Origin: Koleobacter methoxysyntrophicus
GTDB taxonomy: Bacteria > Bacillota > Thermosediminibacteria > Koleobacterales > Koleobacteraceae
Assembly: GCF_017301615.1 (NCBI RefSeq)
Contig: NZ_CP059066.1
Span: 1 to 64,000, forward strand
Reading direction: 5' to 3'
Length of the DNA stretch: 64,000 nt
Made by a program: the position numbers and the translations under genes. Under the pieces are notes generated by a model, which saw only the letters and a list, made by a program, of their open reading frames with translations, had not been told where the DNA came from and did not search any database. Positions within the stretch are counted from its first letter, which is position 1; each line of letters starts with the position of its first letter. Shown in pieces: positions 8,189 through 62,545 of the stretch.

Positions 8189-8216
8189 TGCTAACGATGC
8201 TAACGAGTTGCTAACG
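8189..8216. repeat. Three direct copies of TGCTAACG
   Basis: Copies begin at 8189, 8198 and 8209, spaced 9 and 11 bases apart. Closely phased short repeats like this resemble iterons or a regulator-binding array. Confidence 0.55.
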
Positions 8217-45489: not shown

Positions 45490-45822
45490 TTAACCTTTTA
45501 TTATTTGAATTACTTTGTCCTCTATTTCCGTTATTTTTTCCTTCTTTATTTTACCAACACTATATAAAACTATCCCTCTATCTGCTGTAAAAATTCTGTT
45601 TGGTCTAACATTGCTGTTTTTCACTAATGACCCTTTTTCGAAATCTTTTTCACTAATTGGGATAGCATAAGAATCTTTAATGTTTTGACTCGTAATCTGA
45701 CAAAGGATTAAATCATCTCCACTTAAATTAGCCAGGACAAATGCTGGACGCCTTTTAGAATTTGTAAGATCAGAAAATGGAAAGGGAACGACAACTACTT
45801 CACCTTTTATAAATCTTTCCAC
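45490..45822 (-). CDS. MazF/PemK-family toxin
   Basis: The 110-residue protein has the PemK/MazF fold signature: an N-terminal KGEVVVVPFPFSDLTNSKRRP (basic loop before the catalytic region), AFVLANLSGDDLILCQITSQ and VRPNRIFTADRGIVLYSVGKI. Such toxins cut mRNA. The start overlaps the end of the antitoxin gene by 16 bases, the normal toxin-antitoxin arrangement. It lies in a 1-kb segment between two 69-base direct repeats. Confidence 0.88.
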   Translation of the reverse strand: MERFIKGEVVVVPFPFSDLTNSKRRPAFVLANLSGDDLILCQITSQNIKDSYAIPISEKDFEKGSLVKNSNVRPNRIFTADRGIVLYSVGKIKKEKITEIEDKVIQIIKG

Positions 45823-46912: not shown

Positions 46913-48403
46913 CTATTTCATACTCCCCGTTTCCAAAAACCGTTCATGCCAGGAAAGGGCCTCCTTCATTATGTGGGGGATATGCCCGCCGTTTTCTACC
47001 GCCCTCCTATAGTAGTCTCGAAGCATCGGCTTATAATCGGGGTGGGCGCAGTTTTCGATAATCACCTCTGCCCTCTCTCTGGGAGAAAGCCCCCGCAAAT
47101 CGGCTATTCCCTGCTCCGTAACAATCACATGGACGTCATGTTCCGTATGATCGACATGGGAAACCATGGGGACTATACATGATATATCTCCGTTCTTTGC
47201 GGTTGAGGGCGTTGTAAAGATACTCAGATACGCATTCCTGGCAAAATCCCCTGAACCCCCTATACCGTTCATCATCCTTGAGCCCATTATGTTGGTTGAG
47301 TTCACGTTTCCGTATATGTCTACCTCTATGGCTGTGTTCATTGCGATGGACCCCAGTCTCCTGATGACCTCCGGGTTGTTGCTTATCTCCTGGGGCCTTA
47401 ATATTATTTTGTTTTTGTAACTGTCTATGTTGTTATAGAATCTAATAAGCCCTTCTTCTGAGGGTGTAATGGAGGTCCCTGACGCTATCCTGATTTTTTC
47501 GGCATCTATGAGGTCAAAGACGGAATCCTGAATTACTTCGGAATAGAAATCCATGTTTTGAAAGGGTGATTCCAAAAGGCCCAAAAGTACCGCATTGGCT
47601 ACACTCCCGACCCCTGATTGGAGGGGAAGGAGGTTTTGGGGCAGTCTGCCTTTTTTTACTTCGTTTTGCAGGAATTCTATGAGATGGCCGGCCATCTTCC
47701 GGCTGGTTTCATCTACCGGTGCAAAGGGCCTTACGTTGTCCTTGATGTCCGTTATAACTATACACTGGATCTTATCGGGATTTACAGGTATATACGGATA
47801 ACCTATCCTATCATCCGGTTTTGTTAAGGGGATAGGTTTTCTGCTAGGAGGGTCCTGGAGCTGATATATGTCGTGGATCCCTTTTAGTTCTAAGGGCTGA
47901 CTGGTGTTTATCTCTATCATTATTTTATCCGCTGCACGGGTAAAGGCAGGGGATGCTCCTACCGATGTGGTTGGAATTATGTTTCCTTCTTCGGTTATTG
48001 CCGCCGCTTCTATTATGGCTATATCTATCTTCCCGAAGAATCCGTAACGCACCTGCTGGGGGAAGTGGCTCAGGTGGATATCGGCATAGGCTGTTTCCCC
48101 GGCATTTATTCTGTCTCTTATGGGTTTGTTGGTCTGATAGGGATATCTTTTTGCTATGATACCCTGTTCTGCCAATGCTCCGTCTAGTTCATCCCCTACT
48201 GATGCACCCGTCAGCAACCCGATGCGGATTTTTTCTCCCGTTTTTTTTACTTTTTCAGCCAGTGCAAGGGGTATTGCTTTGGGATAGCCTGAAGGGGTAA
48301 ACCCGCTGGTGGCTATATTCATCCCATCTTTTATGAATTCGGCTGCTTTTTGCGGGGTAGTTATCTTTTTTCTTAATTCTCTGTTCTTTATCCTTTGGTC
48401 CAT
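46913..48403 (-). CDS. Acetyl-CoA hydrolase/transferase-family CoA-transferase (succinate/acetate type)
   Basis: The 496-residue enzyme belongs to the Cat1/AarC-type CoA-transferases, which move CoA between short carboxylic acids. Landmarks are ATSGFTPSGYPKAIPLALAE, TGASVGDELDGALAE, LPLQSGVGSVANAVL, NGIGGSGDFARNAYLSIF and VIVTEQGIADLRGLSPRERA. AGGGAGG precedes the ATG. It follows the aldehyde:ferredoxin oxidoreductase gene by 53 bases. Together the two would interconvert an aldehyde, its acid and the CoA ester. The acid involved is unknown; succinate, acetate or propionate are usual. Confidence 0.92.
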   Translation of the reverse strand: MDQRIKNRELRKKITTPQKAAEFIKDGMNIATSGFTPSGYPKAIPLALAEKVKKTGEKIRIGLLTGASVGDELDGALAEQGIIAKRYPYQTNKPIRDRINAGETAYADIHLSHFPQQVRYGFFGKIDIAIIEAAAITEEGNIIPTTSVGASPAFTRAADKIMIEINTSQPLELKGIHDIYQLQDPPSRKPIPLTKPDDRIGYPYIPVNPDKIQCIVITDIKDNVRPFAPVDETSRKMAGHLIEFLQNEVKKGRLPQNLLPLQSGVGSVANAVLLGLLESPFQNMDFYSEVIQDSVFDLIDAEKIRIASGTSITPSEEGLIRFYNNIDSYKNKIILRPQEISNNPEVIRRLGSIAMNTAIEVDIYGNVNSTNIMGSRMMNGIGGSGDFARNAYLSIFTTPSTAKNGDISCIVPMVSHVDHTEHDVHVIVTEQGIADLRGLSPRERAEVIIENCAHPDYKPMLRDYYRRAVENGGHIPHIMKEALSWHERFLETGSMK

Positions 48404-48456: not shown

Positions 48457-50301
48457 TTAGGTTAATTCTGTAAGTCCTAATCTTTTCAGGGTTTCCTGTT
48501 TGGGTATCCCTTCATCGGTCCAGCCCCTTATCTGGTAGTATTCATTGAGCATTTTCCCGAAGGGAGGCAGGTTCTCTCCCGCTCCTTTGTCCCGGCGGGG
48601 CTGGGTCAGGATCCTCATGGGGATGGTATCGTCTTTTCGGCTTATGCCGCGTTGTGTGTTATACAGCCGCTTGAGGTTGAATATCCTCTCTCCCGTCTCT
48701 AAAAGTTCGTCTACGGTGATATCCCAGCCTACTACGTATTTTATCCACTGGGTCATCATGGTCAGGGTTACCCCTCCGTACAGGAGGAATTTGCAGAGTT
48801 TGAGGGAATCCATAAGGCACATGATGTTCTGGGCATAAAAGTTCAGCCTGCCCTTGCCCTCCGTGCCGTGTCGGTCCTGGGGCTCTTTGTAGCCTATCTC
48901 GGGCATCGTAGCGGTTTTTTCGAAGAAGTAAGTGGCTCCCTGGAGGTGGCATGCACCCCTGTTGCTGGTCGCATAACCTACCGCTAGGCTGTTGAATGCC
49001 CTTGGGTCATGGGCAGGTAATTCCAGCCCTTTGGTATGGATGGCAAATTCGTGGGCAAGGCCCCCTATTTTGTCTGCTGCTTTTTTGACGCCCATACCCA
49101 GGAGTTCTCCTATGCCTTCTTTGTTGGCTATTTTTTTTATAAGCTCTATGGCTGCTCCGGCATTGCCCCAGGTGAGTTCTATGCCGCCCAGGTCGTCTTT
49201 TGTTATGAGCCCGTGTTCATAAAGCTCCATGGCAAAGGCTATTACACCGCCGGTGGATATTGTATCAAGCCCGTAGCGGTTGCAGAGGTCTGCAGCATAT
49301 GCTACTGCTTCCAGGTCGTTTATAAGACAGCATGAGCCTAACATTCCGAGGGTCTCGTATTCCGGGCCTGCTCCATCGACCCCTTTGTAGGGGCCTTCTT
49401 TGATTTCTACATCTCTGCCGCAGCCTATAGGGCATGAACCGCAGTAGTAACGCTTCCTCAGTATTGTTTCGGCCATTTTCTGACCGGATATTTTTTCTGC
49501 GTCTTCCCAGCCTCCCTGTTTCCAGTTTTTTATGGGCAGGTCCCCTATTGTTTCTGAGGGCACTACACCTCCTGCTGTACCTAACAGCCCCAGGGTTTTT
49601 GTTTTTTCTACTATGCCCGGCAAAACCTGTTTTAGGTTTTGTCTTAGACCTTCTTCGTCTGCCACGGGTATTCGCCCTGTTCCTGATACTGCTACGGCTT
49701 TGAGGTTCTTTGCGCCCATGACAGCTCCCAGGCCCGTTCTCCCTACTGCCCTGGCATCTTTGCCATCATGCATTATTCCGGCTATCAGTACCTGTTTTTC
49801 TCCGGCAGGTCCGATACAGGATACTACACTGTTTTGGCCGTGTATTTCCTTGATTTTCTGGTCTGTCTGGAAGGTGTCAAGGCCCCACAGGTCCCGACCG
49901 TCTAGAATCCGGGCTTTGCCGTCCTGGATAAATATATATACGGGGCTTTCGGCTCTGCCGGTTATTATTATTCCGTCAAAACCTGCTTTTTTGAGGTTCA
50001 TACCCCATGTGCCTCCAGCATCGCCTTCCCCGAAGATGCCTGTGAGGGGTGATATGGCTGTTATTTCGTGCCGGCCTGAGGCGGGTACTTTTGTACCTGT
50101 AAGCGGGCCCGTCATGTATATAAGCGGGTTTTCGGGGCTTAAAGGTTCCGTATCGGGTGTTGTCCGTTCGTAAAGGATTTTAGCACCAAGGCCGCTTCCC
50201 CCTATAAACTTTCGGAGGACTTCTTCACCAAAGGTCTCTTCGGTTATTATCCCTTCTGTCAGGTCTATGTTCAATACTTTCCCCGTATAGCCTCCTAGCA
50301 T
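48457..50301 (-). CDS. aor: Tungsten-dependent aldehyde:ferredoxin oxidoreductase
   Basis: The 614-residue enzyme oxidises aldehydes to acids with ferredoxin, or runs in reverse. The N-terminal domain has GGYTGKVLNIDLTEG and GGSGLGAKILYE; the [4Fe-4S] cysteines begin in YCGSCPIGCGRDVEI with the fourth near KLCKF; EYETLGMLGSCC and AHDPRAFNSLAVGYATSNRG form the pterin-binding region. The start at ATG 50301 has GGAGGTG upstream. It heads an operon with the CoA-transferase; a MoaD-like carrier follows further down. Confidence 0.96.
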   Translation of the reverse strand: MLGGYTGKVLNIDLTEGIITEETFGEEVLRKFIGGSGLGAKILYERTTPDTEPLSPENPLIYMTGPLTGTKVPASGRHEITAISPLTGIFGEGDAGGTWGMNLKKAGFDGIIITGRAESPVYIFIQDGKARILDGRDLWGLDTFQTDQKIKEIHGQNSVVSCIGPAGEKQVLIAGIMHDGKDARAVGRTGLGAVMGAKNLKAVAVSGTGRIPVADEEGLRQNLKQVLPGIVEKTKTLGLLGTAGGVVPSETIGDLPIKNWKQGGWEDAEKISGQKMAETILRKRYYCGSCPIGCGRDVEIKEGPYKGVDGAGPEYETLGMLGSCCLINDLEAVAYAADLCNRYGLDTISTGGVIAFAMELYEHGLITKDDLGGIELTWGNAGAAIELIKKIANKEGIGELLGMGVKKAADKIGGLAHEFAIHTKGLELPAHDPRAFNSLAVGYATSNRGACHLQGATYFFEKTATMPEIGYKEPQDRHGTEGKGRLNFYAQNIMCLMDSLKLCKFLLYGGVTLTMMTQWIKYVVGWDITVDELLETGERIFNLKRLYNTQRGISRKDDTIPMRILTQPRRDKGAGENLPPFGKMLNEYYQIRGWTDEGIPKQETLKRLGLTELT

Positions 50302-50444
50302 ATGTTCCACCTCCGTAGTTGTTTATTTAATAAGTTCTCCAACATATAACTTAAGTCCTTTTTTTTTAGCTGTTAATTACTTAGTTTCCATTGAAAAATA
50401 AACCCCTCAAACCCACAATATATCTAGAAGGAGAGGGATGAAAA

Positions 50445-50558
50445 ATGCTGATAATTAAGAACGAAGACTTCAAGCAATTAAGCGTTTTTAACCAACTACT
50501 TCCAAAATTGTGTTTAGAACTAAATTTTCAAAATGCCCAAGCCGTCTCGCTATTATAA
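50445..50558 (+). CDS. Possible 37-residue peptide gene
   Basis: AAGGAGAGGG at 50428-50437 is followed by an ATG at 50445 and the peptide MLIIKNEDFKQLSVFNQLLP, then KLCLELNFQNAQAVSLL. A hairpin follows at once. The compact ribosome site/frame/terminator layout suggests a real small gene or the stump of a transposase. I recognise no family. The remainder of 50302-50700 is AT-rich and otherwise empty. Confidence 0.35.
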   Translation: MLIIKNEDFKQLSVFNQLLPKLCLELNFQNAQAVSLL

Positions 50559-50589
50559 AACTGGCCTAGTCAAATTCCCAGGCCAGTTT
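50558..50589. terminator. Hairpin after the small frame
   Basis: AAACTGGCC and GGCCAGTTT pair perfectly around a 14-base loop. There is no strong T run, so it is a weak terminator in either direction. Confidence 0.5.
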
Positions 50590-50700: not shown

Positions 50701-52128
50701 TCAGCTGCAACCTACTTTTTCAGGAAGGTCCTTTTCTTTGTCAGCTGCTTTTGCATTAAGTTTGCTCTCAACAATAAAGTATAGTATTAAACCGCTTAAC
50801 AGCCCCCAGGCAGCACCCTTTGTCGCTAGTATAGCGCCCATAACCATGGCAACCCCCCTTTGATGGTTGTCGCTCAACATTTTCATCCCAATATACCCAC
50901 AGGCAAAGGCCTGGACAGCCATCGTCAAAGCAAAGAAAATACCGAAGGCAGGCCTTATAAGGGTAACTAGAGGCATTAACATAACAGCTATGACAGTAGC
51001 AGCTCTGAAAGTCCCAACTCCTCCCCAGTAAGAAGGAAGGGTTTTATAACCCATTTTGTATCTTTCGGTAATCGTCAACAATCCCGAAGCCCATAGAGGC
51101 CCATTCATAGGCACCCATGGTGCAAACAGCCCCATAATGGTATTTCTTATTGCAGAAACCAAATTGGAGCGGGAAGCATCAAATTCCACTATTTCATCTT
51201 CTCTCATAGCTGTTGCGTCCTGAACGATTTCTCTGGCCAGAATGAAGTCGCCAAAGGCAATTATATAAGCTGTTAAAGCCATAGGAATAGCGTTTATAAA
51301 GAATTTAATGTCTGGCCACCCTAAACCGAACACGGTATAATTTTTTAATACCGTAGGAAAGTTTAGGGGCGTAAAACTCCAAACAATTTCCGGTTTTGGA
51401 AGTTCATTTAAGATAAAAGGACCAACGATAATGGCAAAAATTTGTGCAGGGACAATACCCTGATTCCTTAGTATTCTAATCCATCTGTTTGTTTCAGCAA
51501 ACCGCGCAAATGTTTCTGAAAAGAGAAAAAAGTAAGCGATACAAGCAGACAAAATGATAGTAATTGGGGCAAGTTTTAACCTTACATTGATAACATTTAA
51601 AGCAGCTGCAATGCCTGCACCCAATATTATTCCCCCTCTGATTGAGACGGGGAGCAATTCAATTAATTTCCTGCCTATGCCGGTAACACCCATGAAAAAG
51701 AACAGAAAAGCAACTAGAAGCTGAAGTGCAATCATTGCATGGATGCGTTCGGGCCCTAAAGCATATGCGGAAAGGTATCCGATGGTCAGCGGCAGGGCCG
51801 GTGTAATCCATCCGGGCACAACGGGATCTCCCAGATGTGCAGGCAAAGCATAGCATATAGCGTTTAAAACCCCAAACGTCAAGGCAATTTCAAAGTCTTT
51901 GATTCCCAGCACTTCCATAGTTGTTGCTACGCCGGCCCCCAAACAGGCAACGCCGAGAAACATAGCCGCTAAACATTCGGTCCATTCCCACTCATAGTGA
52001 ATAAGTGGCAACCTTACTCTAAACGGACCCAAAGGGATATAGGGCTGCACTCCCCCGTAATCCCTTTTCAAGAGTGGAAACATCCCATGGGGCAGTTTTT
52101 GATCCCTTGGTGGCTTTTGTTCAGACAT
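50701..52128 (-). CDS. NCS2-like (nucleobase/solute:cation symporter) permease
   Basis: The 475-residue protein has about twelve hydrophobic segments, a hydrophilic N-terminus (to about residue 45) and a short charged C-terminus. The fold pattern resembles NCS2/SLC23 permeases (GVLNAICYALPAHLGDPVVP, LLPVSIRGGIILGAGIAAAL, NAIPMALTAYIIAFGDFILA), but the family's usual signature is weak, so the substrate cannot be named. AGGAGGT precedes the ATG. A sigma-54 promoter with a long inverted repeat lies upstream, next to a sigma-54 activator gene, so it is very likely a regulated uptake system. Confidence 0.65.
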   Translation of the reverse strand: MSEQKPPRDQKLPHGMFPLLKRDYGGVQPYIPLGPFRVRLPLIHYEWEWTECLAAMFLGVACLGAGVATTMEVLGIKDFEIALTFGVLNAICYALPAHLGDPVVPGWITPALPLTIGYLSAYALGPERIHAMIALQLLVAFLFFFMGVTGIGRKLIELLPVSIRGGIILGAGIAAALNVINVRLKLAPITIILSACIAYFFLFSETFARFAETNRWIRILRNQGIVPAQIFAIIVGPFILNELPKPEIVWSFTPLNFPTVLKNYTVFGLGWPDIKFFINAIPMALTAYIIAFGDFILAREIVQDATAMREDEIVEFDASRSNLVSAIRNTIMGLFAPWVPMNGPLWASGLLTITERYKMGYKTLPSYWGGVGTFRAATVIAVMLMPLVTLIRPAFGIFFALTMAVQAFACGYIGMKMLSDNHQRGVAMVMGAILATKGAAWGLLSGLILYFIVESKLNAKAADKEKDLPEKVGCS

Positions 52129-52214
52129 GCAATTACCTCCTTTTTATTTTATAATTCTGACCTATCCAAAGGCCATAACCAGGAGTCGGATAACCATCCT
52201 ACACCAGCTCAATA

Positions 52215-52231
52215 TTGCAATAATCATACCA
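52215..52231 (-). promoter_or_regulatory. Sigma-54 (-24/-12) promoter of the permease gene
   Basis: On the minus strand the sequence is TGGTATG-ATTA-TTGCA, matching the -24/-12 consensus TGGCACG-N4-TTGCA except for two C-to-T changes; the invariant GG and GC are 10 bases apart. It lies 87 bases before the permease start. Confidence 0.8.
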
Positions 52232-52297
52232 GATTTTAAAAACGTAAAAAAACATTGAAAATCCACGATTTCAGTAAAATGCAAAAAAAATTGTTAC

Positions 52298-52344
52298 TTT
52301 TTTGAGCAGTTATTATTGCTCTAATATGTGACATGCTCAAAAAA
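52298..52344. promoter_or_regulatory. Long inverted repeat, probable activator-binding site
   Basis: Perfect 11-base arms, TTTTTTGAGCA (52298-52308) and TGCTCAAAAAA (52334-52344), flank 25 bases that contain a further TGCTC at 52317-52321. It lies about 70-115 bases upstream of the -24 element, where sigma-54 activators bind, and 14 bases after the activator gene's stop, so it may also act as its terminator. Confidence 0.6.
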
Positions 52345-52357
52345 CTAACAACAAAAT

Positions 52358-54334
52358 TCACCATTCTATATTCATTTCTTTAATCTTCCGATATACAGTA
52401 TTGCGAGAAACACCTAAAATTCTTGCCGTTTTAGAAATATTTCCTCCCGTATCCTTTAACACGGTCATCAAATGTTTCCGTTCCATTTCGCGAAGGTTTT
52501 TGTATGAAACTGGAGTAACAGCGGTTGTTTCAAGACTTCTAACAGAGCTTGGTTTGCATATTTCATCAGGGAGACATTGAGGGGTCAAGAGGTAGTCTGT
52601 CGAAACAGCAATCGCCCTCTCTATAGTATTTTCCAGCTCTCTTACATTGCCAGGCCAGTGATATGCAGTAAGTACTTCTATAAAGCTGGGATCAGGGTAG
52701 TAATTGGCATTTAAAATCCGGCTAAATTTCGCAATAAAGTAATGTATTAAATCAGGTATATCCTCTTTTCTTTCCCGTAATGGAGGAATAAAGATAGAAA
52801 CTACGTTCAATCTATAGTATAGATCTTCGCGGAAGTTTCCCTTTTCAATTTCTCTCTTGAGGTCTTTATTGCTTGCGGCAATAATTCTTACATCCACTTC
52901 CAATTCCTTTTGCCCCCCCAGACGGGTAAAGGTATTACTCTGAAGAAAACGAAGCAACTTTGCTTGTAAATTAAGTGTCATAGAGTTGATTTCATCCAGA
53001 AAAAGGGTACCGCCGTCAGCCATTTCAATTTTACCTATCATGCCTCCCTTTCGCGCGCCGGTAAAAGCACCTTCTTCATACCCAAAAAGTTCGCTTTCAA
53101 TTAATTCAGAAGGGATTGCCGCACAGTTCAAAGTTACAAATGGGCCATGACGATAGTTACTGCAATTATGGATAGCATGGGCAAATAATTCTTTGCCTGT
53201 ACCGCTCTCTCCCAGGAGTAAAACCTTAGCATTGCTTTTTGCAATTCTTTTTGCCATTTCAGTCACTTTAGCCAGACCTTTATTAGAACCGATTATATCT
53301 TTAAAGGAAAATCTGGCACCTGTTGTTCCGAACCGTTTTGCAAGATTCTGTATCGAACGAATCTCCTGAAAAGTGACTAAAGTCTGGGTACAGTCCTTCA
53401 ACTGCATGGGTTTTATTTCTAGGTAAAGATTTTTATTAATCTTGTTCCGCTTATAGGTCAACTCCTGTGAAAAAGCACGTTTGCAGTTTTTGATCTGAGA
53501 ATGAACAGATTGCCATGAATCAAAAATTTCATTAATCTTAACTGGAGGCTCCGATGTTTTGTCAATCTCAAGCAACGAATAGGCAGAACGGCTCATCTTC
53601 TTTATATAGCCATTTTCATCAATAACTATTAGACCTTTTTCTACGGTATCAATAATGTTCTCCAGGAGAGCATTCTGCCTTGATAATTCCTTAGTAATTT
53701 CATGGAGCTTCAAATTTTGTTCAATGGCTTTAACTATACTGACAACCATTCCAAGAGTATGGGGGTGTATTTTATCTCTGTAACCTGTCATATTTACAAA
53801 GCCAATAATTTCCCCCTTTAAATTGTGGATGGGTGCAGTAGCACAGCTCCAAAAATGGAACAGGCGGATATAGTGCTCAGGTCCGATTACCAGAACCGGT
53901 TTTTTATGAAGATATGAAAGAGCAATAGCATTGGTCCCCGAATGCTCTTCCCGTTTGCTTACGCCTGGAAAGGATTTAAGCCTCTTTGAGTCCTCTATAA
54001 TTTCCGATTTGCCCTTGGTTTTTAAAAGATAAGCTTCTGAATCAAAAAGATCTACACGGAAGTTTGTTTCCGATATATTATCTGCCAATGTTTCCAGTAT
54101 AGGCCATGCAACATTAATTAGCTCCGCATTTTTTTCCAACCTTTTTTTCATCTCGTCTTCTGAGAGAACATGGTTATATTCTGACATATTTGGGTCAATA
54201 GCATATGTCTTGCACCTTTGCCATGAATCGTAAATCATTTTATTTACTATATTTGTGTCTACTGGTTTATTGTTGATAAAATTCTGCCACTGAATATTTA
54301 TTTTGCGAATATGCTCATCAATATCGAAAATCAT
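52358..54334 (-). CDS. Sigma-54-dependent transcriptional activator (AcoR-like)
   Basis: The 658-residue activator has an N-terminal GAF-like sensor (about 60-190; GTNAIALSYLHKKPVLVIGP and FHFWSCATAPIHNLKGEIIG as in AcoR), a PAS domain (about 215-300), the AAA+ domain (about 335-565) with LLGESGTGKELFAHAIHN, the sigma-54-contacting EEGAFTGA loop and GGTLFLDEINSM, and a C-terminal Fis-type helix-turn-helix (GNISKTARILGVSRNTVYRK). GAGGTG precedes the ATG. It lies between the permease and a sodium/alanine symporter, in the same direction as both. The permease has a matching promoter. The inducer is unknown. Confidence 0.93.
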   Translation of the reverse strand: MIFDIDEHIRKINIQWQNFINNKPVDTNIVNKMIYDSWQRCKTYAIDPNMSEYNHVLSEDEMKKRLEKNAELINVAWPILETLADNISETNFRVDLFDSEAYLLKTKGKSEIIEDSKRLKSFPGVSKREEHSGTNAIALSYLHKKPVLVIGPEHYIRLFHFWSCATAPIHNLKGEIIGFVNMTGYRDKIHPHTLGMVVSIVKAIEQNLKLHEITKELSRQNALLENIIDTVEKGLIVIDENGYIKKMSRSAYSLLEIDKTSEPPVKINEIFDSWQSVHSQIKNCKRAFSQELTYKRNKINKNLYLEIKPMQLKDCTQTLVTFQEIRSIQNLAKRFGTTGARFSFKDIIGSNKGLAKVTEMAKRIAKSNAKVLLLGESGTGKELFAHAIHNCSNYRHGPFVTLNCAAIPSELIESELFGYEEGAFTGARKGGMIGKIEMADGGTLFLDEINSMTLNLQAKLLRFLQSNTFTRLGGQKELEVDVRIIAASNKDLKREIEKGNFREDLYYRLNVVSIFIPPLRERKEDIPDLIHYFIAKFSRILNANYYPDPSFIEVLTAYHWPGNVRELENTIERAIAVSTDYLLTPQCLPDEICKPSSVRSLETTAVTPVSYKNLREMERKHLMTVLKDTGGNISKTARILGVSRNTVYRKIKEMNIEW

Positions 54335-54567: not shown

Positions 54568-54599
54568 AAAAAAACCCTTATCCGCTAGGATAAGGGTTT
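54568..54599 (-). terminator. Terminator of the alanine symporter gene
   Basis: A perfect 12-base stem (AAACCCTTATCC / GGATAAGGGTTT) with a GCTA loop is followed on the minus strand by a run of T, 7 bases beyond the stop. Confidence 0.92.
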
Positions 54600-58880: not shown

Positions 58881-61800
58881 TTACTCTTCCCTTTTGACCC
58901 CTATCACCATCTTATGGCCATTTATATTCCATTCCCTGGTATAACTCCCTTCAACCGGCTCCCCTTCCCGTATATTCAGGGCCAGGGTTTCACCAGCTAT
59001 GGCAGAACCGAACTGATTAATGACATCATTAACTACTTCATCCCCCTGATAAGATATTGTAATCTTATCCTCAACTTCAAACCCTGCTTCTTTCCTCATA
59101 TTTTGGACCTTGCTGATAAGCTCTCTGGCTATACCTTCTAATTCCAGTTCCCTGGTAATCGTAGTGTCCAGGATTACATAATATCCCCCTTCACCTTCAA
59201 CACAGTAACCTTCCATGTCCTCTACTTTAATCTCCAGTTCATCTTTTGAAATATCTATCTTTTCACCGGAAATTTCCAGGGTTATCTTGCCCTCATTATC
59301 CATCTGAGCTATCAGGCTTGAAGGCTCCATAAGTGAAATCCTTTCAGCAATTTGCGGCACAAGCCTTCCATACTTGGGTCCGAGGATATCATATCTGGGT
59401 TTGATAGTATAGGAAAGGAACCTCCCTGCATCCTCTACAAAGTCGATTTCCTTTATATTCAGTTCCTCTTTAATCAGGCTGTTCATGCTGTCACAGGTAA
59501 GGGATTCCTTATCCTTTTTATCCTTCAGCTTAACATACATTTTCGAAAGGGGCTGTCTGTTTTTTATCTTCGAACGGTTCCTTGCACTCCTGCCCAGGTT
59601 TACAACCTTCCTTACTGTTTCCATGTCCCTCTCAAGGGCAGTATCTATATAACCTTCGAAAGCTTCAGGATAATCACAGAGGTGAACGCTCTCAGGGGCA
59701 TCAGGGTCAACGGCCCTGACCAGGTTCTGGTAGATTGCATCAGATATAAAGGGTATAAAGGGAGCCGTTAATTTGATTATGTTAACAAGAGATTCGTAAA
59801 GGGTGAGATAAGCCGCTATTTTATCATTATCCATTTCACCCTTCCAGTATCTTGACCGGCACCTCCTTACATACCAGTTGCTGAGGTCATCTACCAGGTC
59901 ATCGAGTATCCTTGCAGCTGAAGTAATGTTATAATTGTCGAGGTAATTCCTTACCCCTTTTATAGTATTGTTAACCCTTGAAATCAGCCACCTGTCTATA
60001 TCCGCTCTTTCTTTCACGTTCATGCTGTAATTTTTCGGATTAAATCCATCAATATTAGCATAGAGGACAAAGAAGGAATATACATTCCACAGGGTGTTTA
60101 AAAACTTCCTCTGGGCCTCACTCACGGCCTCCTGATAGAACCTGCTGGGGTTCCATGGAGGGCTGGCTATATACAGATACCACCTCATGGCATCGGCACC
60201 CTGCTGATTTAACACTATCCAGGGGTCCAGGACATTACCCTTATGCTTGCTCATCTTCTGGCCGAATTCGTCCAGCACATGGCCCAGGACCAGGCAGTTC
60301 TTGTATGCCGGTTCACCGAATACAAGGGTTGAAATTACGATAAGGCTGTAAAACCAGCCCCTAGTCTGGTCAACGGCTTCTGATATGAAGTCTGCAGGAA
60401 AGTTCTGGTGGAAGGTCTCTTCGTCTTCAAAGGGATAGTGAAATTGTGCAAAGGGCATAGCACCGGAATCAAACCAGCAGTCGATTACCTCCGGTACCCG
60501 TTTCATTATTCCGCCGCACCGGGGGCACGTAAGTTTAACTTCATCTACATAGGGTTTGTGCAGCTCAATATCTCCTATCTCTTCTACGCTCATTTCTTTG
60601 AGTTCCTTTATGCTCCCTACACAGTGCTGGTGATTGCAGTCCTGACACTCCCAGATATTAAGGGGAGTCCCCCAGTACCTTTCCCGGCTCAAACACCAGT
60701 CAATTACATTCTCAAGGAAATTGCCGAACCTACCGTTCTTTATATGTTCGGGATACCAGTTGACCTTCTGGTTGTTCTCAAGGAGTTTATCTTTAACGGC
60801 GGTGGTTTTGATAAACCAGCTTCCCCTTGCATAATACAGAAGCGGAGTATCACACCTCCAGCAGAAGGGATAGGTATGGGTATAGTCCTCCACCTTATAC
60901 AGCAGGTTTCTCTTTTTAAGGTCTTCCATTATCCCTTTATCCGCATCTTTCACGAACACCCCTTCCCAGGGTCTAACTTCAGAGGTAAACCTGCCCTGGG
61001 GGTCTACCGGTTGAAAAACGGGGAGCCCGTATTCCCTTCCGATCCTGGAATCGTCTTCACCAAAGGCCGGAGCAATATGCACTATCCCCGAACCTTCATC
61101 TGTAGATACAAAATCACCTACAGTGACATAAAAAGCCTCTCTGCCGAAATTGCCGAAGTTGAAAACAGGTTTATATCTTTTGCCCTTCAGGTCACTGCCC
61201 TTTACAGTTTTTATTACCTTATAATCCCCTTCCAGCACCTTTTCTACCAGTTCAGTAGCCATTATTATCTTTTCTCCAATATGGTCAACTACCGCATAGT
61301 CTATATCCTTACCTACTGCCAGAGCTACATTGGAAGGCAGGGTCCAGGGGGTGGTGGTCCATACCATGAAATAGGTATTTTCTTCATCTTCCAGCGGGAA
61401 TTTTACAAAAATAGCCGGTTCTTCAACCTCTTTATAACCCTGGGCAACTTCATGACTTGAAAGAGAAGTTCCGCATCTGGGACAGTACGGAACTACTTTA
61501 TGGCCTCTATAAAGGAGACCTTTATCCCATATCTGCCTCAATGCCCACCAAACGGACTCAATGTATTCATCTTCATAAGTTATATACGGGTTCTCCATAT
61601 CAATCCAGAACCCTACCCTTTCGCTCATCCTGCGCCATTCTGTTTCGTATTTAAATACGCTTTCCTTGCACCTTTTAATGAATTCTTCAACTCCGTACTC
61701 TTCTATTTCTGATTTCCCGTTTATCCCCAGTTCCTTTTCCACTTCAAGCTCTACAGGAAGCCCGTGGGTATCCCATCCTCCCTTTCTTTCCACATGATAA

Positions 61801-62027
61801 CCGACCATAGTCTTATATCTTGGTATTAGGTCCTTTACCACCCTGGTAAGGACATGGCCGGCATGGGGCTTTCCATTGGCCGTCGGGGGCCCCTCGTAAA
61901 ATACAAATTTTTCAGCCCCTTTTCTGTTATCAACACTCTTTTTGAAGATTCCATTTTCATTCCAAAAATTCAGGATTTCTTCTTCGATTGCAGCAAAATT
62001 CATTGTAGGTTCTACCTTTCGAAACAA
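58881..62027 (-). CDS. ileS: Isoleucyl-tRNA synthetase
   Basis: The 1048-residue class I synthetase charges tRNA-Ile. The HIGH motif is in PPTANGKPHAGHVL, KMSKS appears as KMSKHKGNVLDPW, and the editing domain lies between (WTTTPWTLPSNVALAVG). The length and the KMSKHKG form place it with the longer IleS2-like group rather than the 920-residue IleS1 of Bacillus. GGAGGAG precedes the start region. A long leader with an Ile T-box controls it. Confidence 0.96.
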   Translation of the reverse strand: MFRKVEPTMNFAAIEEEILNFWNENGIFKKSVDNRKGAEKFVFYEGPPTANGKPHAGHVLTRVVKDLIPRYKTMVGYHVERKGGWDTHGLPVELEVEKELGINGKSEIEEYGVEEFIKRCKESVFKYETEWRRMSERVGFWIDMENPYITYEDEYIESVWWALRQIWDKGLLYRGHKVVPYCPRCGTSLSSHEVAQGYKEVEEPAIFVKFPLEDEENTYFMVWTTTPWTLPSNVALAVGKDIDYAVVDHIGEKIIMATELVEKVLEGDYKVIKTVKGSDLKGKRYKPVFNFGNFGREAFYVTVGDFVSTDEGSGIVHIAPAFGEDDSRIGREYGLPVFQPVDPQGRFTSEVRPWEGVFVKDADKGIMEDLKKRNLLYKVEDYTHTYPFCWRCDTPLLYYARGSWFIKTTAVKDKLLENNQKVNWYPEHIKNGRFGNFLENVIDWCLSRERYWGTPLNIWECQDCNHQHCVGSIKELKEMSVEEIGDIELHKPYVDEVKLTCPRCGGIMKRVPEVIDCWFDSGAMPFAQFHYPFEDEETFHQNFPADFISEAVDQTRGWFYSLIVISTLVFGEPAYKNCLVLGHVLDEFGQKMSKHKGNVLDPWIVLNQQGADAMRWYLYIASPPWNPSRFYQEAVSEAQRKFLNTLWNVYSFFVLYANIDGFNPKNYSMNVKERADIDRWLISRVNNTIKGVRNYLDNYNITSAARILDDLVDDLSNWYVRRCRSRYWKGEMDNDKIAAYLTLYESLVNIIKLTAPFIPFISDAIYQNLVRAVDPDAPESVHLCDYPEAFEGYIDTALERDMETVRKVVNLGRSARNRSKIKNRQPLSKMYVKLKDKKDKESLTCDSMNSLIKEELNIKEIDFVEDAGRFLSYTIKPRYDILGPKYGRLVPQIAERISLMEPSSLIAQMDNEGKITLEISGEKIDISKDELEIKVEDMEGYCVEGEGGYYVILDTTITRELELEGIARELISKVQNMRKEAGFEVEDKITISYQGDEVVNDVINQFGSAIAGETLALNIREGEPVEGSYTREWNINGHKMVIGVKREE

Positions 62028-62279: not shown

Positions 62280-62545
62280 ATCAAAAAACCCCGGCCCTAA
62301 AAGGGACGAGGTTATAATTCGCGGTACCACCCTAATTGGTTCCCCCTAAGGGAAAACCCGCTCTTGTTCCTTTAACGGAGAAACCGGACCTGCTTAATCG
62401 CCTTTATGCTTTCAGCAGTCAGCTCCAGGGTGATTTTCTACAGGGTAAAGGGACCGGATTTCACCTTCACCGGCTCTCTGCACCTCTTTACGCTCCTGTA
62501 TACTCTTCCCTATCATCGTCAAAATCCCTATCTAAATTTTCCTTA
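62280..62545 (-). promoter_or_regulatory. T-box riboswitch, isoleucine specific
   Basis: On the minus strand the T-box sequence AGGGTGGTACCGCG is at 62333-62320, followed by a terminator (62287-62313, stem AACCTCG..CCCT/AGGG..CGGGGTT then TTTTTT). Stem I shows AGAGAGCCGGTG and a specifier loop with GAAAATCACC, consistent with an ATC (Ile) codon. Uncharged tRNA-Ile would switch ileS on. Confidence 0.9.

What the first reader, a model, noticed from the sequence alone, without database searches (positions are those of the whole stretch)
52215..52344. Sigma-54 promoter and 11-base-arm inverted repeat controlling a permease
TGGTATG-ATTA-TTGCA has exact -24/-12 spacing, and an inverted repeat TTTTTTGAGCA/TGCTCAAAAAA lies about 70-115 bases upstream, next to the gene of an AcoR-like activator. 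The permease is only distantly NCS2-like. The locus looks like an inducible uptake system for an unidentified solute, with the neighbouring alanine symporter perhaps in the same circuit.
Basis: partly seen in the sequence, partly recalled or inferred. Interest (0 to 1): 0.6.

Follow-up and report, generated by a model that had tools for sequence, protein, structure and literature searches.

The report
Sigma-54 switch for an organic-acid-type permease
A bacterial on-switch of a well-known type (a sigma-54 promoter next to the gene of its activator protein) really does sit in front of a membrane transporter gene, but the inverted repeat beside it looks more like the end signal of the activator gene than the activator's landing site, and the transporter belongs to a family that relatives keep next to genes for organic-acid metabolism.

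Summary
The sigma-54 promoter is real. TGGTATG-ATTA-TTGCA (52231..52216, minus strand) has exact GG-N10-GC spacing. It is one of 27 genome matches to TGGYAYRN4TTGCW, against 1 for the reversed control, and the genome encodes RpoN. The three nearest permease homologues (75, 65, 63% identical) have such a site 83-165 bp before the permease and an activator gene upstream. The inverted repeat also exists, but is more probably the intrinsic terminator of the activator gene. Its arms extend to 18 bp around one G.G mismatch, start 6 nt after the activator's stop codon and end in T8 (-21.9 kcal/mol; 0 of 150 shuffles as stable). The three relatives and most similar junctions in this genome have a terminator there. 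An enhancer inside the same repeat is not excluded, but the motif precedes no other sigma-54 promoter. The permease matches no Pfam or NCBIfam model, but is 40% identical to solved PurT (PDB 7TAK). Its homologues neighbour 4-hydroxybutyrate enzymes, AOR, Fe-alcohol dehydrogenase and CoA-transferase genes, so an organic acid is my preferred substrate class, not proven; this genome lacks the hallmark 4-hydroxybutyrate dehydratase. The neighbouring alanine symporter shows no sign of belonging to the circuit. Verdict: a new member of a known kind.

The parts
52216..52231 (-). sigma-54 (-24/-12) promoter TGGTATG-ATTA-TTGCA; predicted transcript start near 52205
52291..52351 (-). long imperfect inverted repeat TTGTTAgTTTTTTGAGCA...TGCTCAAAAAAgTAACAA; most likely intrinsic terminator stem of the activator gene, possibly overlapping an enhancer site
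52283..52290 (-). T8 tract directly after the hairpin (terminator tail)
52302..52324 (-). 23-bp imperfect palindrome TTAGAGCA-ATAATAAC-TGCTCAA inside the repeat; alternative enhancer (UAS) candidate
50701..52128 (-). 475-aa PurT-like permease (NAT/SLC23 superfamily by homology to PDB 7TAK)
52135..52144 (-). ribosome-binding site AAAAGGAGGT of the permease
50555..50589 (-). intrinsic terminator after the permease (AAACTGGCCT...AGGCCAGTTTTAT, about -20 kcal/mol), making the permease a single-gene transcription unit
52358..54334 (-). 658-aa sigma-54-dependent activator (GAF, AAA+ with GAFTGA, HTH_8), AcoR/DhaR-like
48457..50310 (-). tungsten-type aldehyde:ferredoxin oxidoreductase (AOR); neighbour, no sigma-54 site of its own
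46913..48403 (-). succinyl-CoA:acetate CoA-transferase; neighbour, 77% identical to the one next to the permease in L042
54606..55967 (-). AGCS-type alanine/glycine:cation symporter; adjacent, no evidence that it is in the circuit

Best explanation
The locus is a two-unit sigma-54 switch. RNA polymerase with sigma-54 sits at TGGTATG-N4-TTGCA, and the AcoR/DhaR-type activator, when its GAF-containing N-terminal region senses a small molecule, contacts it and uses ATP to open the promoter. This gives a single-gene transcript, closed by its own terminator, for a 475-residue PurT-like permease. The permease most likely imports an organic acid handled by the neighbouring aldehyde oxidoreductase and CoA-transferase type of metabolism. 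Shown by sequence: the promoter, its conservation before homologous permeases, the activator's domains, both terminators and the family of the permease. Inferred: that this activator acts on this promoter, where it binds, what it senses and what is transported.
For: Exact -24/-12 site, best in window. 27 genome matches to TGGYAYRN4TTGCW against 1 for the reversed pattern, mostly intergenic and before catabolic or transport genes. RpoN present at 2933339-2933815; about 31 sigma-54 activation domains in the genome. sigma-54 sites 83-165 bp before the permease in L001, L002 and L078, each with an activator gene upstream in the same orientation. Over 33 permease loci, 19 have an intergenic sigma-54 site within 6 kb upstream against 0 with the reversed pattern. 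Activator domains. Terminator features of the repeat: -21.9 kcal/mol with T8 tail, 0 of 150 shuffles, z -3.25 for the folded stretch; hairpin plus T-run after the activator in L001, L002, L078 and at most sigma-54 junctions behind activator genes in this genome. Organic-acid neighbours of homologues.
Against: No transcript data. A third half-site, TTAGAGCA, in the loop (chance about 2.3%) is not needed for a terminator and fits a binding site. In L078 a perfect 18-bp-arm repeat that is not followed by a T-run lies at nearly the same distance from its sigma-54 site (67-114 bp, against 66-113 here). The terminator stem is A/U-rich. Substrate: the solved relative PurT was reported to carry purines (from memory), this genome has three xanthine-dehydrogenase-type proteins, and it lacks a 4-hydroxybutyryl-CoA dehydratase and the Fe-alcohol dehydrogenase seen with relatives.
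Confidence: 0.72

Rival explanations
1. The inverted repeat is the activator's enhancer (UAS): TTAGAGCA-N8-TGCTCAA with an extra TTGAGCA half-site binds activator dimers that loop to the sigma-54 promoter. It could double as the terminator.
For: Three TGAGCA-type half-sites in 47 bp; 11-bp arms unlikely by chance (0.5%); third half-site in the loop 2.3%; distance to the promoter of about 66-113 bp is at the near edge of the 100-250 bp reported for most clostridial UAS sites (PMC6615313); a repeat at nearly the same distance in L078; no other UAS candidate was found in the interval.
Against: The repeat has every feature of an intrinsic terminator and starts 6 nt after the activator stop; relatives and other junctions in this genome have terminators there; the palindrome alone is not unusual (11 of 60 shuffles score as well); the motif occurs before no other sigma-54 promoter; the L078 repeat differs in sequence although its recognition helix is nearly the same.
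Confidence: 0.35
2. The permease is a purine or other nucleobase importer like PurT, and the circuit is an inducible purine-salvage or purine-catabolism uptake system.
For: 40% identity to PDB 7TAK, named PurT; the FGD motif of the predicted substrate-site helix and the PGWITPA motif are kept; sigma-54 control of purine genes (DioR with pbuX and xdh genes) is predicted in Clostridiales (PMC6615313); three xanthine-dehydrogenase-type proteins in this genome.
Against: The window clade lies apart from the 7TAK clade in the tree; no purine gene is adjacent; close homologues sit with AOR, others with 4-hydroxybutyrate enzymes; TM3 and TM10 motifs differ (GDP for GVP, MNGP for LAGP).
Confidence: 0.25
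3. The activator controls both the permease and the alanine symporter, a shared alanine-responsive circuit.
For: The genes are adjacent and on the same strand; a one-mismatch copy of the motif lies about 90 bp before the alanine dehydrogenase gene elsewhere in the genome.
Against: No sigma-54 site before the symporter, a strong terminator between symporter and activator, no symporter near the permease in relatives, and no sigma-54 site before the alanine dehydrogenase gene.
Confidence: 0.05

Closest known systems
sigma-54/EBP switches of anaerobic Firmicutes (39 EBP groups reconstructed in Clostridiales, PMC6615313)
   Same: One-component activator gene next to its target, -24/-12 promoter, single target operon, catabolic or transport target
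   Different: The activator fits no curated equivalog model and the permease target with this activator type is not among the listed groups; the UAS is not established here
XanR regulon abfD-nifU-hyp-ach-golB (PMC6615313)
   Same: Same gene order as L047/L086, which end in a homologous permease (a sigma-54 site precedes the operon in L047); suggests golB is this permease family (inference)
   Different: The window has no abfD or 4-hydroxybutyrate CoA-transferase, its activator has a GAF and AcoR/DhaR layout instead of CBS-PAS, and its permease clade is separate
PurT of Colwellia psychrerythraea (PDB 7TAK), NAT/SLC23 family (organism and purine transport from memory)
   Same: Full-length homology, 40% identity, conserved PGWITPA and FGD motifs
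   Different: Different clade, different neighbours, changed TM3/TM10 motif residues, substrate untested
AcoR/DhaR-type activators
   Same: GAF, AAA+ and HTH_8 domains in that order; DhaR is the second-best curated model
   Different: Scores below the DhaR and PrdR cut-offs; no acetoin or dihydroxyacetone genes adjacent

Membership tests
sigma-54 (-24/-12) promoter | GG and GC doublets ten bases apart in a TGGCAC-N5-TTGCW context | tested here: met
   10 of 12 positions, exact spacing
sigma-54 (-24/-12) promoter | the host encodes RpoN and uses this class of site | tested here: met
   RpoN at 2933339-2933815; 27 against 1 matches genome-wide
sigma-54 (-24/-12) promoter | site kept upstream of homologous genes | tested here: met
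   L001, L002, L078; 19 of 33 loci against 0 for the control
sigma-54 (-24/-12) promoter | transcript starts about 12 bases after GC and depends on rpoN and an activator | not testable with these tools
   needs 5'-end mapping and mutants
sigma-54 activator, AcoR/DhaR type | AAA+ domain with GAFTGA, Fis-type HTH, GAF-containing sensory part | tested here: met
   PF00158 2.2e-71, PF02954 7.8e-15, PF01590 4.3e-05; GAFTGA in the translation
DhaR or PrdR equivalog | score above the curated NCBIfam cut-off | tested here: not met
   396 against 551 and 402 against 795 bits
EBP enhancer (UAS) at the inverted repeat | palindrome shared by co-regulated promoters or conserved in orthologues | tested here: inconclusive
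   no other sigma-54 promoter has it; no close orthologue of the activator available; L078 has a different repeat at nearly the same distance
intrinsic terminator of the activator gene | stable hairpin just after the stop codon, followed by a T-run | tested here: met
   activity not tested
PurT/NAT permease | sequence homology to a solved member over the full length | tested here: met
   7TAK, E 2.5e-98, residues 19-455
NCS2 (Pfam Xan_ur_permease) | match to the Pfam or NCBIfam models | tested here: not met
   no match up to E 10 in Pfam, none in NCBIfam
XanR-type 4-hydroxybutyrate cluster | 4-hydroxybutyryl-CoA dehydratase in the operon or genome | tested here: not met
   no match in the genome

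The most novel reading that the evidence does not exclude
A large branch of PurT-like NAT-fold transporters in anaerobic Firmicutes, including the window's own clade, carries organic acids (4-hydroxybutyrate in one clade, acids linked to aldehyde oxidoreductases in others) and not nucleobases, and is repeatedly placed under sigma-54 activators of unrelated types (CBS-PAS, GAF/AcoR-like, two-component response regulators).
Probability: 0.4. Interest if true: 0.55.

Novelty: new member of a known kind. Interest (0 to 1): 0.3.

Why it matters
The switch itself is ordinary. The useful part is the family context: transporters that match no Pfam or NCBIfam model, whose one solved relative is a purine carrier, occur with 4-hydroxybutyrate, aldehyde-oxidoreductase and CoA-transferase genes behind sigma-54 promoters. 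If they carry organic acids, it would assign a substrate class to an unannotated branch of the NAT fold and give testable importers for 4-hydroxybutyrate in anaerobes. It also shows that an inverted repeat between an activator gene and its target promoter may be the activator's terminator rather than its binding site.

Tried and rejected
Alanine symporter in the circuit: no sigma-54 site, own terminator, not conserved. Shared UAS motif genome-wide: only the local copy matches without mismatch; the one-mismatch sites at 405191 (before alanine dehydrogenase, no sigma-54 site) and 2715194 (inside a gene) look like chance. sigma-54 control of the AOR/CoA-transferase genes: no site in the 390-bp gap, and the permease has its own terminator. 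4-Hydroxybutyrate as the window permease's substrate: the genome lacks the dehydratase and the Fe-alcohol dehydrogenase used as queries (the empty searches had no positive control within the same call). TGT-N10-12-ACA type UAS in the interval: none seen by eye. Structure prediction of the permease from a 3-sequence alignment failed (mean pLDDT 31), so no fold search was made. The paper on 7TAK is not in the library.

Full report
OBSERVATION. On the minus strand, between the activator gene (stop at 52358) and the permease start (52128), the site TGGTATGATTATTGCA lies at 52231..52216 with exact GG-N10-GC spacing. It is the best match in the window by a simple consensus score (tied with one other); 0.7% of shuffles of this intergenic region do as well. 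In the whole 3.10-Mb genome the stricter pattern TGGYAYRN4TTGCW has 27 matches against 1 for the reversed pattern. Most are intergenic and lie before genes for amino-acid and organic-acid catabolism or transport, several directly behind an activator gene (gene identities there judged by eye). RpoN is encoded, with about 31 sigma-54 activation domains. The promoter is therefore real to the extent sequence can show it.

COMPARATIVE TEST. The three nearest permease homologues (L001 75%, L002 65%, L078 63% identical) all have a sigma-54 site 83-165 bp before the permease: TGGCATAACTCTTGCT, TGGCACAAATTTTGCA, TGGCATAGAATTTGCA. Each has a sigma-54 activator gene upstream in the same orientation: an AcoR/DhaR-like protein in L078 (40% identical to the window's activator), a response-regulator type in L001, and in L002 a C-terminal fragment resembling that of L001. 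So the sigma-54 control of the permease is conserved although the activator type changes. Across 33 permease loci, 19 have an intergenic sigma-54 site within 6 kb upstream and none has the reversed control.

THE INVERTED REPEAT. Perfect 11-bp arms with at least three G/C occur in 0.5% of shuffles. But the arms extend, around one G.G mismatch, to TTGTTAgTTTTTTGAGCA / TGCTCAAAAAAgTAACAA (52291-52351), starting 6 nt after the activator's stop codon and running straight into TTTTTTTT. As RNA the stretch folds at -22.4 kcal/mol (z -3.25); a hairpin plus T-run this stable appears in 0 of 150 shuffles. L001, L002 and L078 each have an unmistakable hairpin-plus-T terminator between activator and permease. 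Of seven junctions in this genome where a sigma-54 promoter follows an activator gene, L100 and L115 have one directly after the stop, L099, L111 and (by eye) L113 have a weaker or more distant one, L110 none of note, and the window's is the most stable. The economical reading is that the repeat terminates the activator transcript. In favour of an enhancer: a third half-site in the loop (2.3% by chance), and a perfect 18-bp-arm repeat without a T-run at nearly the same distance in L078 (67-114 bp against 66-113). Against: the palindrome by itself is unremarkable (11 of 60 shuffles) and no other sigma-54 promoter in the genome carries the motif. The two roles are compatible. I put about 0.65 on terminator and 0.35 on a role as enhancer, overlapping.

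THE ACTIVATOR. 658 aa, with GAF (weak), Sigma54_activat, AAA lid and HTH_8, and GAFTGA in the sequence. The best curated models are PrdR and DhaR, both well below cut-off, so AcoR/DhaR-like describes it but it is not a member of either equivalog. Its sensory half has no close relative in 199 related genomes (best 37%). Its ligand is unknown.

THE PERMEASE. No Pfam match even at E 10 and no NCBIfam match, but full-length homology to PDB 7TAK, 'Putative membrane protein PurT' (E 2.5e-98), 40% identical. From memory, that protein (Colwellia psychrerythraea) is a proton-coupled purine transporter of the NAT family; the paper is not held. In the tree, 7TAK groups with L080 and L089, apart from the window clade and from the clade linked to 4-hydroxybutyrate genes. 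PGWITPA and FGD motifs are shared; neighbouring positions in the presumed TM3 and TM10 differ. Neighbours of homologues: 4-hydroxybutyryl-CoA dehydratase (closest PDB 1U8V) and/or 4-hydroxybutyrate CoA-transferase (closest 3EH7, 3GK7) at 12 loci or more; Fe-alcohol dehydrogenase with AOR at L043, L046, L082; AOR plus a 77% identical succinate CoA-transferase at L042, the same order as in the window. In the window's own clade, AOR adjoins the permease in the window, L078 and the truncated copy in L081. The genome has six AOR genes, so one within 5 kb is about a 2% chance event (own arithmetic). This points to organic acids. But the genome lacks a match to the 4-hydroxybutyryl-CoA dehydratase and the Fe-alcohol dehydrogenase queries and holds xanthine-dehydrogenase-type proteins, so the substrate stays open: organic acid about 0.5, purine about 0.25.

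UNIT STRUCTURE. The permease ends at its own terminator (50555-50589, about -20 kcal/mol) and the AOR/CoA-transferase pair has no sigma-54 site, so the sigma-54 transcript is most simply monocistronic. The alanine symporter is separated from the activator by a strong terminator (54572-54599).

COMPARISON WITH WHAT IS KNOWN. Sigma-54 regulons of this kind are described for 57 Clostridiales species, with activators usually next to a single target operon (PMC6615313). Its XanR operon abfD-nifU-hyp-ach-golB has the gene order of L047/L086, which end in a homologue of this permease; that golB is this family is my inference. The window locus is thus a new member of a known kind, with an activator and a permease clade not listed there.

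Noticed in passing
window 62299-62525 (minus strand): T-box leader (RF00230) just upstream of a class-I aminoacyl-tRNA synthetase gene at 58881-62027 that looks like isoleucyl-tRNA synthetase.
   Followed up: no
own genome G000:C1, 27 sites (loci L097-L116): A large sigma-54 regulon: intergenic sites before genes that look like lysine 2,3-aminomutase, BKACE (lysine fermentation), methionine gamma-lyase, agmatinase, a class-III aminotransferase and sodium symporters, i.e. an amino-acid fermenter.
   Followed up: partly
L078, 67-114 bp before the sigma-54 site at the permease: A perfect repeat with 18-bp arms, not followed by a T-run, at nearly the same distance from the promoter as the window's repeat; a good UAS candidate there.
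   Followed up: partly
L052 near position 8190 (genome 405191-405212): TTGAGCA-N8-TGCTTTA about 90 bp before an alanine dehydrogenase gene, without a sigma-54 promoter; probably chance.
   Followed up: yes
L081 6399-8721: An aldehyde oxidoreductase gene followed by a truncated copy of the window-type permease (N-terminal 9-39 and C-terminal 357-474 matched, middle missing): gene remnant or assembly fault.
   Followed up: no
L048 13875-18912: Long arrays of short repeats that translate as ISIHAPTQGAT and its other frames, probably CRISPR arrays, downstream of the permease.
   Followed up: no
window 45490-45822 (minus strand): Small ORF that looks like a MazF/PemK-type toxin.
   Followed up: no
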